A DNA stretch of 64,000 nt, taken from NCBI RefSeq assembly GCF_030065545.1, contig NZ_JASJNC010000002.1, positions 310,001-374,000 of the forward strand. The letters run 5' to 3'. A program made the translations under genes and the position numbers. Of this stretch, positions 48,297 to 56,044 are shown one piece after another. The stretch comes from Marinicella marina. Lineage in GTDB: Bacteria; Pseudomonadota; Gammaproteobacteria; Xanthomonadales; Marinicellaceae. The first letter of the stretch is position 1. Every line of letters starts with the position of its first letter. The notes below the pieces were generated by a model. The model ran no database searches, had not been told where the DNA came from, and was given only the letters and a program-made list of their open reading frames with translations.

Positions 48297-51200
48297 ATGA
48301 AACATCTGACCATTCTTATTATCCTAACCGCACTGATTGGCAGCCAAGCGCATGCCCAAAAAGGCGCTACTTACCAGTTACCTGCCATTGATGTGGTGGC
48401 TGAGAAGGCTGCCGAAGTATCAGCCAAAGGGCCAGTTCCCTATGGCATCAGTACTCAAATTGATGATCTGAAAATGCAACAGGGTGAAATCAAACAAGGC
48501 ACTTGGGTGAAAACAGCATCCAATGAATGGCAATGGAGATTGTCGGTGAGTGCTGAAAATGCCACCAGTTTAGATTTTGGCTTCAAAAATTTCTATTTGC
48601 CACCCTCTGCTGAATTGGTGATTGTCAGTGCGGATAAACAAGTGATGAAAGGTCCATACGATGGTTCTGTGAACCAAAAGCATGGCTATTTTTGGCCGGG
48701 AACAATACCTGGAAGCGGTGCAGAGATTACTATCACTGTGGCAGAACAATTCAAAAAGTATTTAAATTTTGACTTGTATGACATTCCTCGCGGTTACTTT
48801 CGTTTTTGGGAGCAGCCCACAACAGAAAAAAGCTTGGCATGCAATATCGATGTCAATTGTGAAGCCGGCGACCCATGGGAAAATCAAATTAATTCTGTGG
48901 CCAGGTATACTTTCACATCAAATAACCGTACCTTCTTTTGTTCAGGTCAATTAATCAATAACACGGCTAATGATGGCACACCTTATTTTTTATCAGGTAA
49001 TCATTGTGGGTTCGAGGACGCCTCGAATACCAATCAAAAAGAAGCCATTGCAGCCTCGATGAATTTTTGGTGGAACTACCAATCTCGAACCTGCAGAACA
49101 CCTGGTTCGGGACAAAGTGGTGTAACAATATCCACAGCTGGGTTCAATGACACCCAATCAGGCGCCACATACATTGCCAATAATGCTGCCAGTGATTTTG
49201 TTTTGGTCAGATTGAACCAGTCTCCTGATTCAAGTTTCGGTACAGAGTTGACCGGTTGGGACAGGCGTGCCTCAGTTCCAGACAGTGCTTTCTCAATTCA
49301 TCACCCCAGAGGTCACGCCAAAAGAATCGCTTTTGAAAACTCACCACTGAGTTTAATTTCTCCCACACCAGGTGTCAGTAACACGCACCTACAAGTATTT
49401 GAGTGGGATGAGGGTTTGACTGAACAAGGGTCTTCAGGTGGCGGATTGTGGACCAATGAAGGCCTGTTGGTTGGACAGCTGCACTTTGGAACTTTGGCTC
49501 AAGTTTGCACCGATACTGTTACTGATGGTTATGGTCGCTTTTTCACCTCATGGGATTTAGGGAATAACCCGCAATCCAGATTGAAAGAATGGCTGGATCC
49601 CATCAACACTGGCCAAGAAACTTTACAAGGCACCGGTGGCTGCGAGGCCCCCGCAGTAGATATCGTCAATGATTCTTCTAACCAAGTGGGTGATTTGTTG
49701 ACTTTCAGTGCCTTGGTCAGTGGCGGTGCCGGTGGCTATGAATATGCTTGGGAAATCAATGCAGATGAGGGCATTGATGGCCGTGATGATGACATCCAAG
49801 CCCGCTACAACCAAGAATACGTTGGAAACATTGTTTTGAACGTTACCGACTCGGCTGGCTGTGTGGGATCAGCATCGAAAGCCGTGGTGGTGGCCAGCCC
49901 CGATGTCCAAATCAATAATACAGGCGTACTGAATGACCAGCTGTTTCAAGCCTGCGGTAACAACGATGGCGTGATTGATCCAGGCGAGCGTTGGTCGGTG
50001 GCCCTGAGTGCCACCAACAGCGGTGCCTTCACTGCCAACAAAGCCTATTTGGCACTGGGTAAAAACCGCAACAGTTTCGACAGTGACATCGGTGATGATT
50101 ATGGCAACCAGGCGGCCAGTTGTGAGCGTTTGTTTATTGACATAGAAAACACCGGCACGTTGAAAACTTGGGACTCAGCAGGGTTTCAGGGTTTCGGGGC
50201 AGATGATGAGGGTTCTGCCTTGATTCAGTTGGATACCGGTTTTGACCACTATGGTCAAAACATCACCCAACTGCGTGCTTCGACCAACGGTTATTTCAGC
50301 ACCAGTGCAGATGCCATTGGTGACGATTTCAGTAATGACTGCCCATTACCGGATGCGCCCGATAGAGACACCGCAGGTGCGCGCATTGCGCCCATGCACA
50401 CTGACTTGTTAGGCTCAGCGTTTTACCACCAATCATTCGCATCATGCCCAAGGGCTGCTGAGACTGGTGTGGATTTGGCTTGTGAAGTGTTTCTGTGGAA
50501 AGGTGCTGATTATTACAGCAGTACAGATTCAACTGTTGAGGATGTTGATGTTCAAGCGATTCTTTATCCTGCTACCTCGCAATGGGTGTATCAATACGGA
50601 GGCAGTGATTTAGATGCCGGTCGTTCAACCACCGGCATGCAAAATGCATCTGGTACAGATGGCTTTTCTTATGCTTGTAACACCGCCGGCAGCATCAACA
50701 CCAACGAGGCCGTTTGTGTGTTCAATAAAAATGCCCAGCCTGAGTCTGCCAGTGCCGATTTTGTTGTGTTAGAAACGCCCTTGTTAGACCTAGGTAATGT
50801 GGCGCCGTCGCAAACGGCCAATGCCACCCTGACTTTCGCCATTGGTGAGGATGCCAGTTGTGGTGCCAGCTTTGCGATTAACCACGAAGCCAGCGTCTTT
50901 GACCAAGGTTTTAACCCGGGAGCCAATAACATCATCAGCCGCAGTATCGGTGATGGTGGCAGTTGTGATGTGGTGACCAGTTGTGGTGTAGGCGCCGCCC
51001 AACCTATAAGTAATGAGACCAACACCATCACCCCGCGTCAAGGTTTGTGGTGGAATCCAGACCGCGATGGCAATGGCTTTGATTTGTATACCATTGCCCG
51101 CAACAGCCTGGCTTATTTTTTCTATACTGGACAAGCTGACGGTGAACCTATTTGGTATTTAGCCAATGACAATGATTCAGAACACAACCAGTATTACAAC

Positions 51201-51737
51201 AACATCACCACCACCAATTACCCTGGGGGCTTTGGTGTGGGTGCGGCAAATCTATCGACGGTTGGTTGGTCAAACACCACATTCATTGATGACTCCACAG
51301 CCATCATGGTGCGTGAAATTGATGGAAAACTCAGTGCTGAAAAACAGTTCTTTTTCCAATATGGACCGAATGAAACACCCAGAATGCACACCGGACCGTA
51401 TTTCACCCCCAGTGAAAACGGTTGGGGACATTCCATTGGTACCTTAGGTAATGCCCGCGTTGCCATTTCCTTTATCTATGACAATAACGGCAATCCGTAC
51501 TGGACCATCGGTAACGGTCCCAATGATGATTCGGCATTCAATGTGTTCTACAACAATACCTTCTGTCCATCTTGTCCAAAAACAGGTACCAGTCCACAAG
51601 TGGTTGGTGAAATTCAAATGACTTTGAATGGTCAGCGCGATGGCACATTGGTTAAATACAATGTTGATGCTGAAAATGTGGATTGGGATAAATCAAACTT
51701 GCCGTTACAAATTATTTTGGTACCAGAACAAGAGTAA
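48297..51737 (+). CDS. Secreted trypsin-like serine protease (lysyl endopeptidase-like), 1146 aa
   Basis: A signal peptide ends near SQAHA. A propeptide-like region of about 170 residues is followed by a chymotrypsin-fold domain. The triad is His236 (FLSGNHCG), Asp300 (ASDFVLVRLN) and Ser380 (EQGSSGGGLW), with cysteines placed as in Achromobacter lysyl endopeptidase. Then come a PKD-like segment (about 450-530), a long region with conserved Cys, and a C-terminal beta domain (about 910-1146) starting near RQGLWWNPDRDGNGFDLY. The enzyme should digest extracellular protein. It is 8 bp from the SPOR gene, but probably has its own regulation. Confidence 0.88.
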   Translation: MKHLTILIILTALIGSQAHAQKGATYQLPAIDVVAEKAAEVSAKGPVPYGISTQIDDLKMQQGEIKQGTWVKTASNEWQWRLSVSAENATSLDFGFKNFYLPPSAELVIVSADKQVMKGPYDGSVNQKHGYFWPGTIPGSGAEITITVAEQFKKYLNFDLYDIPRGYFRFWEQPTTEKSLACNIDVNCEAGDPWENQINSVARYTFTSNNRTFFCSGQLINNTANDGTPYFLSGNHCGFEDASNTNQKEAIAASMNFWWNYQSRTCRTPGSGQSGVTISTAGFNDTQSGATYIANNAASDFVLVRLNQSPDSSFGTELTGWDRRASVPDSAFSIHHPRGHAKRIAFENSPLSLISPTPGVSNTHLQVFEWDEGLTEQGSSGGGLWTNEGLLVGQLHFGTLAQVCTDTVTDGYGRFFTSWDLGNNPQSRLKEWLDPINTGQETLQGTGGCEAPAVDIVNDSSNQVGDLLTFSALVSGGAGGYEYAWEINADEGIDGRDDDIQARYNQEYVGNIVLNVTDSAGCVGSASKAVVVASPDVQINNTGVLNDQLFQACGNNDGVIDPGERWSVALSATNSGAFTANKAYLALGKNRNSFDSDIGDDYGNQAASCERLFIDIENTGTLKTWDSAGFQGFGADDEGSALIQLDTGFDHYGQNITQLRASTNGYFSTSADAIGDDFSNDCPLPDAPDRDTAGARIAPMHTDLLGSAFYHQSFASCPRAAETGVDLACEVFLWKGADYYSSTDSTVEDVDVQAILYPATSQWVYQYGGSDLDAGRSTTGMQNASGTDGFSYACNTAGSINTNEAVCVFNKNAQPESASADFVVLETPLLDLGNVAPSQTANATLTFAIGEDASCGASFAINHEASVFDQGFNPGANNIISRSIGDGGSCDVVTSCGVGAAQPISNETNTITPRQGLWWNPDRDGNGFDLYTIARNSLAYFFYTGQADGEPIWYLANDNDSEHNQYYNNITTTNYPGGFGVGAANLSTVGWSNTTFIDDSTAIMVREIDGKLSAEKQFFFQYGPNETPRMHTGPYFTPSENGWGHSIGTLGNARVAISFIYDNNGNPYWTIGNGPNDDSAFNVFYNNTFCPSCPKTGTSPQVVGEIQMTLNGQRDGTLVKYNVDAENVDWDKSNLPLQIILVPEQE

Positions 51738-51820: not shown

Positions 51821-52705
51821 TCAATCTTCGGCTCGATAGGGCCTGGAGTCATCTGCCTGAATACTGAAGCGGCGGTAGGTCCATTGGTATTGGCTGGGGT
51901 TGATTCGAACCATCTCAGCGATGGATTGGTTCATGCTGTTAACTGAGGCTTCTAATTCACCATAAATCTCTGGTGAGGCGACTTTGAAATGTAAATCAAA
52001 CCCTTTTCCATCGGCCAAACGTTCGGCCACAGCAAAAATGACTGGTGTTTTGGTTTTCATCGCAATCTTTGAGAACAGGGTCATGGTATAGGCCGACTGC
52101 CCCATGAAAGGTGAGAACACACCTTGACCGTTTTTGGGTTGTTGGTCAGGCAGGATGGCCAGGATGTGGTTTTGTTTCAATACTTTAAACACCTGTCTAA
52201 CGCCTTTGGCGTTGGCTGTGATTTGGTTGGCACCGCCTTGGCCGCGGTTTTTTAATAGCTGTTGTTCAATTTTTTTATCATCAGGTGGCTTATAAAGGAA
52301 CGAGAAGCCATCGTAGCGAGATAGCCACAGGTTCAATACTTCCCAGTTACCAAAGTGCGGTACAGCCAACAACAACCCTTGCTGTTGTGCTAAGGCCTGT
52401 TCAAGCACCTCCAAACCATGAAAATCAACGATTAAATCATCTATTCGGCCGGCGTATTTTCGCCAAATCACACCCAATTCCAACATCGACTTGATGGTTT
52501 CTGTCAACCCCGCTTGGGCCAGTTGTTGCTGTTCTTCTTCACTCAGTTTAGGGTAACAGCACTTGATGTTGGTGGTGGTGATGCGCCGCTGCTTTTCCGA
52601 CCAGCGCCAGACCAAGCGGCTCATGAATGCGGCCCATTTATGGGCTGTTTTCAAGGAGAGCTTACTGCTGAACCAAATGATGAATTGGAATAAAAATGCT
52701 CGCAT
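51821..52705 (-). CDS. LpxL/HtrB-type lipid A acyltransferase
   Basis: A 294-residue lysophospholipid acyltransferase-like protein. The catalytic HxxxxE/D motif is HFGNWE in LLAVPHFGNWEVLNLW, followed by NQITANAKGVRQVFKVL and DQQPKNGQGVFSPFMG, as in LpxL/LpxM. A hydrophobic N-terminal helix anchors it to the inner membrane. It should add a secondary acyl chain to Kdo2-lipid IVA; which position cannot be told. The start at 52705 is preceded by no strong Shine-Dalgarno sequence. The sRNA terminator just upstream insulates it. Confidence 0.88.
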   Translation of the reverse strand: MRAFLFQFIIWFSSKLSLKTAHKWAAFMSRLVWRWSEKQRRITTTNIKCCYPKLSEEEQQQLAQAGLTETIKSMLELGVIWRKYAGRIDDLIVDFHGLEVLEQALAQQQGLLLAVPHFGNWEVLNLWLSRYDGFSFLYKPPDDKKIEQQLLKNRGQGGANQITANAKGVRQVFKVLKQNHILAILPDQQPKNGQGVFSPFMGQSAYTMTLFSKIAMKTKTPVIFAVAERLADGKGFDLHFKVASPEIYGELEASVNSMNQSIAEMVRINPSQYQWTYRRFSIQADDSRPYRAED

Positions 52706-52776
52706 GGGTGTATTCTAAACCAAAAACCAAAAGCTCGATTGATAAAACACAGGCAAAACTCAGATTAAAATAGGAC

Positions 52777-52809
52777 AAAAAAAACCGCCAACTCAACAAG
52801 TTGGCGGTT
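52777..52809 (-). terminator. Rho-independent terminator of the regulatory RNA
   Basis: An 11-bp perfect stem AACCGCCAACT/AGTTGGCGGTT (52783-52793 with 52799-52809) and a 5-base loop, followed on the minus strand by eight T residues (52784-52777). Confidence 0.95.
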
Positions 52810-52975
52810 AATTTACGAAGGCCCCAAACACAGAACCTTCTATTCCTTATTCCCGAGTATGGTACTCCTGTACCTGATTGTTTCTCCCTGTAAACAACCA
52901 TTGAATCAGTTCCTGATTCATCCATTAGCTCCTTTTGGGCCTACTGACCTGAGTCTGTCCAAAAACTCAATCCAT
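52777..52975 (-). ncRNA. CsrB/RsmYZ-like CsrA-sequestering RNA
   Basis: Read on the minus strand, this roughly 200-nt stretch has nine GGA motifs, four displayed in hairpin loops: TGAGT/ACTCA with loop TTTTGGACAG (52969-52950), TGAATCA/TGATTCA with GGAAC (52920-52902), TTGTTT/AAACAA with ACAGGGAG (52897-52878) and GGTAC/GTACC with AGGA (52874-52861). A long-range helix AGGCCCAAA/TTTGGGGCCT (52942-52934 with 52828-52819) can enclose them. It ends in a strong terminator. GGA-in-loop arrays are the binding sites of CsrA/RsmA, so it probably titrates that translational regulator. No conserved coding frame runs through it. Confidence 0.82.
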
Positions 52976-52981
52976 GCGTCA

Positions 52982-53010
52982 ATTATGTCGCTTTGAATGG
53001 GTTTTGGCAG
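52982..53010 (-). promoter_or_regulatory. Sigma-70 promoter of the regulatory RNA
   Basis: On the minus strand CTGCCA (-35, 53010-53005) and CATAAT (-10, 52987-52982) are 17 bp apart, giving a start near 52975. The -35 is weak, which fits an activator-dependent promoter. Confidence 0.65.
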
Positions 53011-53030: not shown

Positions 53031-53048
53031 TGTAAGAAATTTCCTACA
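53031..53048 (-). promoter_or_regulatory. GacA/UvrY/LetA-type upstream activating box
   Basis: The palindrome TGTAGG-N6-CTTACA (minus strand) differs by one base from the GacA consensus TGTAAG-N6-CTTACA. Its centre is about 65 bp upstream of the predicted RNA start, the position of such boxes before rsmY and rsmZ in Pseudomonas. Confidence 0.8.
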
Positions 53049-53107: not shown

Positions 53108-53353
53108 TCAGGATTTGCTTTTGGGTGATTCGGGTTTTTTTGATGTCCCTTGGTTGTCCTTTTGGGGCTTTTTGGTTTTGAAATCGGTTTCATACCAACC
53201 TGTGCCCTTGAGTCTGAAGCCAGCGGCGGAGATTTTTTTGCTGAGCGCAGGGTGATCACAAGCCGGACAATCTTTCAGCGGGTCATCAGACATGCGTTGT
53301 AGTTTTTCCATTTCATGGCCACAGTCTTGGCATTGGTATTCGTAAATTGGCAT
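53108..53353 (-). CDS. FmdB-type zinc-ribbon protein
   Basis: An 81-residue protein whose first 42 residues form a zinc ribbon: MPIYEYQCQDCGHEMEKLQR with CxxC, then DCPACDHP with a second CxxC. A flexible Lys/Ser/Pro-rich tail follows. The family is widely annotated as a putative regulator but its role is not established. Cytoplasmic. It lies between clpB and the regulatory RNA on the same strand. A terminator separates it from clpB. Confidence 0.9.
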   Translation of the reverse strand: MPIYEYQCQDCGHEMEKLQRMSDDPLKDCPACDHPALSKKISAAGFRLKGTGWYETDFKTKKPQKDNQGTSKKPESPKSKS

Positions 53354-53430: not shown

Positions 53431-56013
53431 TTAGTGGGGCTGGCTGGCAGTAAATTCAAGTTGATCATCAACTAAATTCACTTCAATCACGCTGCCAGGT
53501 GGAAATGTTCCAGCCAGTAATTTGGATGCCAACGGATTCTCCAGCTCATCTTGAATCGCGCGTTTCAATGGCCTTGCGCCATATACAGGATCAAAACCGA
53601 CACTGCCCAAGAAATCTAAGGCGTCTTGACTGATGTTCAAGCCCAAATCACGAGTGGCCAAACGTTTCTGCACTTTCTTGATTTGGATCTTGGCAATCAA
53701 GCGTATGTGTTCTTGTTTCAAAGGGTGGAACACCACGATGTCATCCACACGGTTGATGAATTCAGGTCTGAAGTGGCCGCCGACCACAGTCATCACTGAA
53801 TCTTTGATCTCTTTATAGGGTTCATTGATCTTTTCTTGAATGATGTCAGAGCCTAAGTTCGAGGTCATGATGATGACGGTATTTTTAAAGTCAACGGTGC
53901 GGCCTTGGCCATCAGTCAAACGACCATCATCCAATACCTGTAACAGCACATTGAAGACATCGGGGTGGGCTTTTTCAACCTCATCCAACAAAATCAAAGA
54001 ATAGGGTTTGCGTCTGACTGCCTCGGTCAAGTAGCCGCCTTGATCGTAGCCAACATAACCCGGAGGCGCGCCAATCAAACGTGCCACCGAATGTTTTTCC
54101 ATGAACTCAGACATGTCCAATCGAATGATCGAATCTTCGGTATCAAACATGAATTCAGCCAACGCTTTACACAGCTCGGTTTTACCGACACCGGTGGGGC
54201 CGAGGAACATGAATGAACCAATTGGGCGGTTGGGATCGGCCAAACCGGAGCGTGAGCGACGAATGGCATCAGCCACTGAAGTCACAGCCTCTTCTTGGCC
54301 GATCAGGCGTTTGTGAATGGCGGCTTCCATCTGTAGCAGTTTTTCTTTTTCACCTGCCATCATCTTGGTTACTGGAATGCCGGTCCACATCGAAACAATC
54401 TCAGCAATCTCAGCTTCAGTGACTTTGTTGCGCAATAACTTGAACTGACTCATGTCTACTTCAGTGGCTTGGGATATCTGTTTTTCCAGTTCGGGTATTT
54501 TGCCGTACTGCAATTCAGACATTTTGGCCAAATCACCTTGTCTTTGCGCCACTTCGAAAGCCGCCTTGGCTTCCTCAAGCTCTTCTTTCAAATGTGTGGT
54601 GCCTTGTACCGCGGCTTTTTCGCTGTTCCAAATTTCTTCCAGATCAGAATACTCACGTTCCATGGTCTTGATGCTTTCTTCCAACTCCGCTTGGCGTTTT
54701 TTTGAGGCTTTGTCTTTTTCCCGCAACAGACTTTCACGTTCCATTTTTAATTGAATCAACTTGCGATCCAGTTTATCCAACTTGTCAGGTTTAGAGTCAA
54801 TCTCCATGCGAATGCGAGAGGCCGCCTCATCCATCAAATCAATCGCTTTATCGGGTAAATTACGATCGGTGATGTAGCGGTGAGAGAGAGTGGCTGCTGC
54901 GATGATTGCTGGGTCAGTAATTTCAACCGCATGATGCACTTCATAGCGTTCATTCAAGCCACGCAGGATGGCAATGGTGTCCTCCACTGAAGGTTCATCC
55001 ACCAAAACTTTTTGGAACCGGCGTTCAAGCGCTTTGTCCTTCTCGATGTGTGAACGGTATTCATCTAAAGTGGTGGCGCCAATACAATGTAACTCGCCGC
55101 GTGCCAGCGCCGGTTTCAACATGTTACCCGCGTCCATGGCACCCTCTGCAGCGCCAGCCCCAACCATGGTGTGTAACTCATCAATGAATAAAATTACTTG
55201 GCCTTCTTGTTTACTCAAATCATTCAACAGGGATTTCAAGCGTTCTTCAAATTCGCCGCGGTATTTCGCTCCTGCAATCAGCGCGCCTAAATCCAGCGAT
55301 AATAATTTCTTGCCTTTGACACCCTCGGGTACTTCATTATTGACAATGCGTTGGGCCAGACCTTCAACAATCGCAGTTTTACCGACACCGGGTTCACCAA
55401 TGATGACTGGGTTGTTTTTGGTACGGCGTTGCAGGATTTGAATGGTGCGCCTGATTTCTGCATCACGACCGATGATGGGGTCCATTTTCGATTGGGCCGC
55501 GCGCGCAGTTAAATCTACCGTGTACTTTTCCAGAGCCTGACGGTTTTCTTCTGCACCAGCATCATCAACAGTTGAATCACCACGGACTTCATCAATGGCC
55601 TTTTCCAGTGAGTCACGGCGCGCCCCAGCTTTCTTCAGCAGTTGTGCGGTGGTGTCGCTGGAGTCCATCAAAGCCAAAGCGAACAGTTCGCTGGCGATGT
55701 ATTGGTCGTCGCGTTTCTGAGCGATTTTATCGGCTAAATTAAGCACTTTGACCAAGTTATTCGATAGGTTCACTTGACCGGTGTTGTTAGCAATCACTGG
55801 CATCAACTCGATGGTCTCATGCACACTGTTGCGCAGTTGACCGACGTTGACCCCGGATTTCATCAAAACATGTTTGATGGATGAGTGTTCTTGGTCCAAC
55901 AAAGCGGCTAATACATGCGCCGATTCAATCATGTTGTGGTCTTTACCGACCGCGATTGATTGGGCTTCGTTTATGGCTTGTTGGAAATTGGTTGTTAGTT
56001 TATTAAAGTTCAT
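53431..56013 (-). CDS. clpB: ATP-dependent disaggregase ClpB
   Basis: An 860-residue Hsp100 protein. N-domain repeats span about residues 1-145. NBD1 has Walker A GEPGVGKT, the [10 protein letters not shown] region and a helical middle domain (about 405-525, rich in Lys/Glu). NBD2 has [25 protein letters not shown] and [11 protein letters not shown]. It resolves protein aggregates with DnaK. The open frame includes a TTG at 56022, but the ATG at 56013 has GGAA 5 nt upstream. A matched sigma-32 promoter lies just before it, so it is a heat-shock gene. Confidence 0.97.
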
Positions 56014-56044
56014 GATTTCCAATTAAATATTTCAGTTGCCAAAG

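What the first reader, a model, noticed from the sequence alone, without database searches (positions are those of the whole stretch)
52777..52975. Candidate new CsrB/RsmY/RsmZ-type regulatory RNA
Minus strand: nine GGA motifs in about 150 nt, four in hairpin loops (loops TTTTGGACAG, GGAAC, ACAGGGAG, AGGA), a long-range enclosing helix, and a strong terminator with eight T residues. This is what CsrA/RsmA-sponge RNAs look like. A short open frame across it (52925-52662) reads through the terminator and is not credible. If confirmed it links the many secreted products here to the Gac/Csr global network.
Basis: partly seen in the sequence, partly recalled or inferred. Interest (0 to 1): 0.82.

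Follow-up and report, generated by a model that had tools for sequence, protein, structure and literature searches.

The report
New CsrA-sponge RNA in Marinicella
This is very probably a small regulatory RNA that soaks up the global regulator protein CsrA, of the same working kind as CsrB or RsmZ in well-studied bacteria but with a sequence of its own, shared across much of a family of little-studied marine bacteria.

Summary
The minus strand 52975-52777 can form a compact structured RNA (z -4.69) with nine GGA motifs before a strong terminator. It lies in a Marinicella-type genome. Thirteen of 18 same-genus genomes (its own included) carry a clear homologue and two a weaker one; weaker matches occur in 10 of 15 sister-genus genomes, 9 of the 10 with the dyad. 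Covariation supports four hairpins and the terminator (18 of 34 pairs change on both sides, 0 of 500 shuffles). The genome has csrA and a GacA/UvrY-like regulator. One complete genome in the family lacks csrA, gacA, dyad and RNA together. Rfam does not reach it; E. coli CsrB scores 380 bits in the same library. The short ORF is not supported, the enclosing helix is not conserved, and the RNA is probably not a leader of the next gene. Best reading: a new sequence family of Csr/Rsm antagonist RNA. Expression and CsrA binding are untested; the link to secreted products is unsupported.

The parts
53031..53048 (-). UvrY/GacA-type dyad TGTAGGAAATTTCTTACA, probable activator site, centre about 64 nt before the inferred start
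   Evidence: Only perfect match to TGTARGN6CYTACA in the 3.46-Mb genome; perfect in 6 of 13 genus members, one half degenerate in 7 of 13; at one mismatch or less a site is in 21 of 33 family genomes, in 16 of them at this RNA, reversed control 0 of 33
52982..52987 (-). -10-like CATAAT; 43 nt from the dyad (43-44 nt in 13 of 13 genus members, 42 nt in 8 of 9 sister-genus loci placed)
   Evidence: start of transcription is inferred, not measured
52777..52975 (-). predicted Csr/Rsm-type sRNA, about 199 nt
   Evidence: fold z -4.69; covariance model R1 hits; 9 GGA
52949..52970 (-). 5' hairpin with loop TTGGAC
   Evidence: G016, G012 and G017 also fold a 5' hairpin with a GGA loop, of different sequence in G012 and G017
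52902..52920 (-). hairpin 1, GGA in or beside the loop
   Evidence: GGA in 10 of 13
52875..52900 (-). hairpin 2, loop ACAGGGAG, resembles the CsrA SELEX consensus
   Evidence: 5 of 7 pairs change on both sides; GGA in 12 of 13
52861..52874 (-). hairpin 3, GGTAC-AGGA-GTACC
   Evidence: GGA in 8 of 13
52844..52857 (-). single strand CTCGGGAATAAGGA, CTCGGG invariant in 13 of 13
52817..52840 (-). hairpin 4 with invariant loop GTGTTT, no GGA in the window
   Evidence: 6 of 7 pairs change on both sides; loop GTGTTT 13 of 13
52777..52809 (-). intrinsic terminator, 12-pair stem and 8 T
   Evidence: stem cells 97.7% paired over 13 sequences
51821..52705 (-). downstream neighbour: lipid A-type acyltransferase, with its own -10-like TAGAAT at 52717-52712
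   Evidence: Pfam PF03279 142 bits; -10-like box 6-7 nt before ATG in 14 of 16 genes looked at
53108..53353 (-). upstream neighbour: FmdB-type zinc-ribbon protein
53431..56022 (-). upstream neighbour: ClpB-type ATPase
   Evidence: named by recognition, not scanned; matches beside the RNA in 12 of 15 genus loci given (several loci are cut by contig ends)

Best explanation
A GacA/UvrY-type response regulator, when phosphorylated, binds the dyad at 53048-53031 and turns on a promoter at CATAAT. The product is a stable, non-coding RNA of about 199 nt ending at its own terminator. Its GGA motifs, several in hairpin loops resembling the CsrA consensus, bind several CsrA dimers and take CsrA off mRNAs, so CsrA-repressed genes are released. 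Shown here by sequence: the RNA's conserved structure, the GGA excess, the dyad and its fixed place, csrA and a GacA-like gene in the genome, and their joint absence in one complete relative. Inferred: transcription, GacA binding, CsrA binding, and the effect on target mRNAs.
For: Fold stability. Matches in 15 of 18 same-genus genomes, 13 of them at 108-154 bits, and weaker ones in 10 of 15 sister-genus genomes, E 4.8e-7 to 0.13, plus two more found through the dyad. Covariation 18 of 34 pairs on a plain MAFFT alignment, 0 of 500 shuffles and far above all slid controls. GGA 190 against 86 +/- 7.5 in 22 members. Dyad: single perfect site in the genome; within one mismatch in 21 of 33 family genomes, 16 at this RNA, against 0 of 33 for the reversed pattern; 43-44 nt to the -10 in 13 of 13 genus members and 42 nt in 8 of 9 sister-genus loci placed. 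The published UvrY site is TGTAAGN6CTTACA (PMC4682653, passages) and the CsrA SELEX consensus RUACARGGAUGU (PMC7652899, passages). csrA present, matching CsrA-family chains in the PDB. GacA-like gene at 275 bits for the UvrY/SirA/GacA model, 52% identical to E. coli UvrY. G018, in two contigs and rated 100% complete, lacks csrA (57), a gacA orthologue (77), dyad (46) and RNA (39).
Against: No transcript or binding data. The GacA-like protein is 5 bits under that model's curated cut-off (275 against 280). The BarA/GacS candidate scores far under its cut-off (393 against 890). GGA excess in the window sequence alone is not significant against dinucleotide shuffles (p 0.09). The dyad is imperfect in 7 of 13 genus members, and five of the 21 genomes have it only elsewhere. 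One homologue, G009, keeps only 3 GGA. The most invariant hairpin loop, in hairpin 4, holds no GGA in the window. Three same-genus genomes gave no RNA match; two of them, G005 and G015, do have csrA and gacA (completeness 89 and 81). G025 and G032 have an RNA match but no gacA match (both drafts, not looked into).
Confidence: 0.9

Rival explanations
1. A GacA-controlled sRNA that acts mainly by base-pairing or through another protein, with GGA motifs incidental.
For: Hairpin 4 loop GTGTTT and strand CTCGGG are the most invariant unpaired parts and need not bind CsrA; G009 keeps both with only 3 GGA.
Against: GGA enriched about twofold across 22 members; hairpin 2 keeps GGA in 12 of 13 while its stem changes; in sister-genus sequences the hairpin before the terminator carries GGA (by eye).
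Confidence: 0.07
2. A 5' leader or attenuator of the downstream acyltransferase gene.
For: The gene follows on the same strand in 14 of 15 genus loci and 8 of 11 sister-genus loci given.
Against: A full terminator lies between them; the gene has its own -10-like box 6-7 nt before ATG in 14 of 16 genes looked at; the two g4 loci with the RNA lack the gene nearby (L108, L111), as does L113.
Confidence: 0.02
3. A short protein-coding gene, 52925-52662 minus (87 aa).
For: Open frame exists.
Against: Start codon not kept in the nearest relative, indels of one base, overlap with the next gene, reads through the terminator; conservation follows base pairs. A codon-level test was not run.
Confidence: 0.01

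Closest known systems
CsrB/RsmB (Rfam RF00018) and CsrC of enterobacteria
   Same: Many GGA in hairpins, own promoter with UvrY dyad, terminator, csrA and a uvrY-like gene in the genome
   Different: No match to the model; about half as long (E. coli csrB 369 nt); 9 GGA against 22 in CsrB and 14 in CsrC (numbers from PMC11882849, passages); dyad about 64 nt upstream of the inferred start, whereas PMC4682653 reports UvrY crosslinking at -222 to -142 at csrB (passages)
RsmX, RsmY, RsmZ of Pseudomonas
   Same: GacA-controlled RNAs with several unpaired GGA that sequester RsmA-type proteins (PMC2375449, passages); size nearer to these (recalled)
   Different: No Rfam match to an Rsm family; sequences not compared directly
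RsmX/Y/Z of Legionella with LetA/LetS
   Same: LetA/LetS drives Rsm RNAs that bind CsrA (PMC5338858, passages); the GAAATTTC core of the dyad resembles the LetA box as I recall it
   Different: No Rfam match; the LetA box string is recalled, none of the 10 papers listed prints it
Pf1-Pf3 Csr sRNAs of Pseudoalteromonas fuliginea
   Same: Found by the same marks: GGA, promoter, terminator (PMC11882849, passages); Pf3 also has 9 GGA
   Different: Another bacterial order (recalled); studied by experiment there, not here; sequences not compared

Membership tests
Csr/Rsm antagonist sRNAs (functional class) | Several GGA motifs, many in hairpin loops | tested here: met
   9 GGA; unpaired probability 0.65 or more for 7 of 9; 190 against 86 in 22 members
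Csr/Rsm antagonist sRNAs (functional class) | Independent gene with promoter and intrinsic terminator | tested here: met
   (sequence level only)
Csr/Rsm antagonist sRNAs (functional class) | GacA/UvrY site upstream | tested here: met
   one base off the published consensus; imperfect in 7 of 13 genus members
Csr/Rsm antagonist sRNAs (functional class) | CsrA in the genome with RNA-contact residues L4 and R44 | tested here: met
   residues named in PMC7652899 (passages)
Csr/Rsm antagonist sRNAs (functional class) | GacA-type regulator and GacS-type kinase in the genome | tested here: inconclusive
   Regulator: best family by far, 275 against cut-off 280; kinase: right domains, BarA model 393 against 890
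Csr/Rsm antagonist sRNAs (functional class) | Binds and sequesters CsrA | not testable with these tools
   needs gel shift or CLIP
Csr/Rsm antagonist sRNAs (functional class) | Expressed as a discrete RNA under GacA control | not testable with these tools
   needs RNA-seq or Northern
Rfam CsrB/RsmB RF00018 or any other Rfam Csr/Rsm family | Match at the gathering score | tested here: not met
   0 matches in the window; no Csr/Rsm family among 7 matches at E up to 10; 0 in the 19 relative loci given while E. coli csrB scores 380 bits
suhB/mmgR sRNA (RF00519) | Match at the gathering score | tested here: not met
   26 against 41 bits, the alignment rests on the terminator

The most novel reading that the evidence does not exclude
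A two-part Csr RNA. Besides the GGA sponge, the Marinicella RNA gained a second functional head, hairpin 4 with an invariant GUGUUU loop next to an invariant CUCGGG strand. It stands where sister-genus sequences have a GGA hairpin, and would pair with mRNAs or bind another protein. G009, which has few GGA but keeps this head, would be a lineage moving from sponge to second function.
Probability: 0.15. Interest if true: 0.6.

Novelty: new member of a known kind. Interest (0 to 1): 0.45.

Why it matters
Csr antagonist RNAs are hard to find because they usually lack sequence conservation (stated in PMC11882849, passages). This gives a model for Marinicellaceae, with promoter dyad, covariation and partner genes, and so an entry to the Csr network of a little-studied marine lineage. 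The invariant non-GGA hairpin and the GGA-poor homologue are testable oddities.

Tried and rejected
Rfam at permissive threshold gave only weak matches, the best resting on the terminator. The idea that G009 lost csrA along with its GGA motifs was tested and dropped: the alaS-type gene, next to csrA in the window's genome, is cut by a contig end in G009, its contig ends just after it in G014, and it is not found in G007, so their missing csrA is probably an assembly gap. Ten other sites in the own genome within one mismatch of TGTARGN6CYTACA were fetched; on either strand none has more than 4 GGA in any 150 nt downstream (one search had missed some of these sites). Four genomes outside the family gave CM matches at E 0.17-0.22; the four loci read lack the dyad and look like chance. 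Pairing of the 5' CCC with CTCGGG was considered by eye and left: GGG does not vary. Papers: Marinicella with sRNA gave one paper, which looks unrelated by its title and abstract start, and Marinicella with CsrA none.

Errors put right: the core was cut short in G001, G002 and G008, redone; the FmdB frame was off, redone (ClpB against the own genome) was of no use; notebook entry 3 names L153 for the phosphoglycerate mutase-like ORF, which only L154 and L158 show.

Rows dropped: one search counted 22 of the 26 sequences of A5; L107, L109 and L111 had no -10 by my rule and L113 was not entered. A5 itself leaves out L114, L119-L123.

Full report
WHAT IS THERE. Read 5' to 3' on the minus strand, the region holds an 18-bp dyad TGTAGGAAATTTCTTACA (53048-53031), a CATAAT hexamer (52987-52982), a GGA-rich stretch and a terminator with eight T ending at 52777. 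It folds at -66 kcal/mol, z -4.69, and none of 200 shuffles folds as well. Nine GGA precede the terminator; in the whole window only one other place, inside clpB, reaches nine in 166 nt. Against dinucleotide shuffles of the sequence alone nine is not rare (p 0.09), so this count would not carry the case by itself.

WHERE IT LIES. The nearest relatives of the downstream acyltransferase are Marinicella contigs and one labelled Lysobacterales (the genome's own record may be left out there); the genus is in Marinicellaceae, Lysobacterales. The RNA gene lies between an FmdB-type zinc-ribbon gene with clpB upstream and an acyltransferase gene downstream, all on the minus strand (ClpB named by recognition).

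RELATIVES. A DNA search of 61 genomes found strong homologues in the same genus. I aligned 13, the window's own included (A1; promoter A2; 3' part A3). A covariance model from A3 (R1) found matches in 29 of 121 genomes at E up to 1: 15 of 18 same-genus genomes (13 of them at 108-154 bits, G013 at 49.9, G010 at 39.3), 10 of 15 sister-genus genomes of the family (23-48 bits, E 4.8e-7 to 0.13), and 4 of 88 genomes outside the family at E 0.17-0.22. The 13 strong ones built the model and match by construction; the others are independent. Of the 12 weaker family loci read (L107-L118), 9 have the dyad upstream by a strict pattern; of the five other loci read (L119-L123) none has. Two more sister-genus copies were found through the dyad (L156, L157) and then scored 20 and 31 bits.

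STRUCTURE. The model (four hairpins and the terminator) was drawn by hand from the window and a few relatives. On A3, aligned without regard to structure, it pairs 90.2% of cells; 18 of 34 pairs change on both sides in some sequence, reached by 0 of 500 shuffles, and sliding the partner by 1-3 columns drops pairing to 31-50%. On A4, fitted to the model and so leaning to it, the figures are 93.9% and 20 of 34.

GGA. In 22 members, measured from -10 to terminator, there are 190 GGA against 86 +/- 7.5 in mononucleotide shuffles, highest shuffle 114. By place over 13 genus members GGA is found in or beside hairpin 1 in 10, hairpin 2 in 12, hairpin 3 in 8, the strand before hairpin 4 in 13, and hairpin 4 in 4. 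Hairpin 2 (loop ACAGGGAG) resembles the SELEX consensus RUACARGGAUGU (PMC7652899, passages). The clear exception is G009 with 3 GGA.

THE DYAD. The UvrY site is published as TGTAAGN6CTTACA (PMC4682653, passages); ours differs at one of the twelve fixed bases. TGTARGN6CYTACA has a single perfect place in the 3.46-Mb genome; with up to two mismatches it is no rarer than its reversed control (237 against 345), so only the perfect site has weight. The ten one-mismatch places were fetched and none precedes a GGA-rich stretch (at most 4 GGA per 150 nt). In the family, TGTAGGAAATTTCYTACA with up to one mismatch is in 21 of 33 genomes, the reversed pattern in none. By position 16 of these 21 have it at the RNA; G002, G003, G008, G023 and G025 have it only elsewhere, and some genomes have further copies (G030 nine places). 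In the genus the dyad is perfect in 6 of 13 members and one half is degenerate in 7 of 13, so the site is not fully kept; but the spacing to the -10 hexamer is 43-44 nt in all 13, and 42 nt in 8 of 9 sister-genus loci that could be placed, 67 in the ninth.

PARTNERS. The genome has one csrA, next to an alaS-type gene (by recognition), above the cut-offs of two CsrA models and under that of a third, close to solved CsrA-family chains, with L4 and R44 (residues from PMC7652899). The best UvrY match is 52% identical, with receiver and LuxR-type domains, and hits the UvrY/SirA/GacA model at 275 bits, just under its cut-off of 280. A match to it at E up to 1e-45 is in 30 of 33 family genomes; the misses are G018, G025 and G032, of which G025 and G032 do have an RNA match. 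A hybrid kinase with HisKA, HATPase, receiver and Hpt domains is the better BarA candidate but is far from that model's cut-off. csrA is found in 26 of 33 family genomes; of the seven misses, G007, G009 and G014 lack the place next to alaS in the assembly, G028, G030 and G031 were not looked into, and G018 is in two contigs, rated 100% complete, has an alaS-type match, but no csrA, no gacA match, no dyad and no RNA match. That is one genome, so it agrees with the model but is thin. G005 and G015 have csrA and gacA but no RNA match.

ALTERNATIVES. The RNA is probably not a leader of the acyltransferase gene: a terminator intervenes, the gene has a TANAAT box 6-7 nt before ATG in 14 of 16 genes looked at (the two sister-genus starts shown do not, and may be misplaced starts), and L108, L111 and L113 have the RNA match without the gene nearby. 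The ORF is not kept at its start in the nearest relative. A base-pairing role cannot be excluded and is kept as rival and as the novel case, because the GTGTTT loop of hairpin 4 is invariant in 13 of 13 while its stem varies.

COMPARISON AND NOVELTY. E. coli csrB is found by Rfam at 380 bits, but none of the 19 relative loci given in the same call nor the window reaches any family. So it works like CsrB/RsmZ, as far as sequence can say, but is not a member of a catalogued RNA sequence family. In the held papers I found no report of it: Marinicella with sRNA one paper, unrelated by its listing, Marinicella with CsrA none; subscription journals are mostly not held. I call it a new member of a known kind.

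WHAT STAYS OPEN. No expression, start site, GacA binding or CsrA binding was measured. The link to secreted products is conjecture.

Noticed in passing
window 52817-52840 and L003-L014: Hairpin 4 loop GTGTTT is invariant in 13 of 13 genus members though it has no GGA in the window; sister-genus sequences show a GGA-loop hairpin (GGTTAGGATGACC type) before the terminator.
   Followed up: partly
L006 1501-1667 (G009): Homologue with only 3 GGA; loops of hairpins 2 and 3 read ACATGACG and GCATGATGC, yet dyad, hairpin 4 and terminator are intact.
   Followed up: partly
L154 (G025) and L158 (G023): A dyad of the same kind (one mismatch) lies shortly upstream of an ORF beginning like a phosphoglycerate mutase (recognised by eye), so the GacA-type regulator may also control protein genes there.
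   Followed up: no
L159, L160, L162, L163: A similar dyad (one or two mismatches) sits upstream of what look like gene starts in three genomes (G002, G008, G030).
   Followed up: no
window 52705-52717: The acyltransferase gene has a -10-like box 6 nt before its ATG, likewise 6-7 nt in 13 of 15 relatives looked at, which suggests a leaderless mRNA.
   Followed up: partly
G018 (genus g2 of the family): A two-contig genome of the family without csrA, gacA match, dyad or this RNA: apparent absence of the whole circuit.
   Followed up: partly
window 48297-51737: Large ORF of 1146 aa with a signal-like start, looking like a secreted trypsin-type protease (by eye).
   Followed up: no
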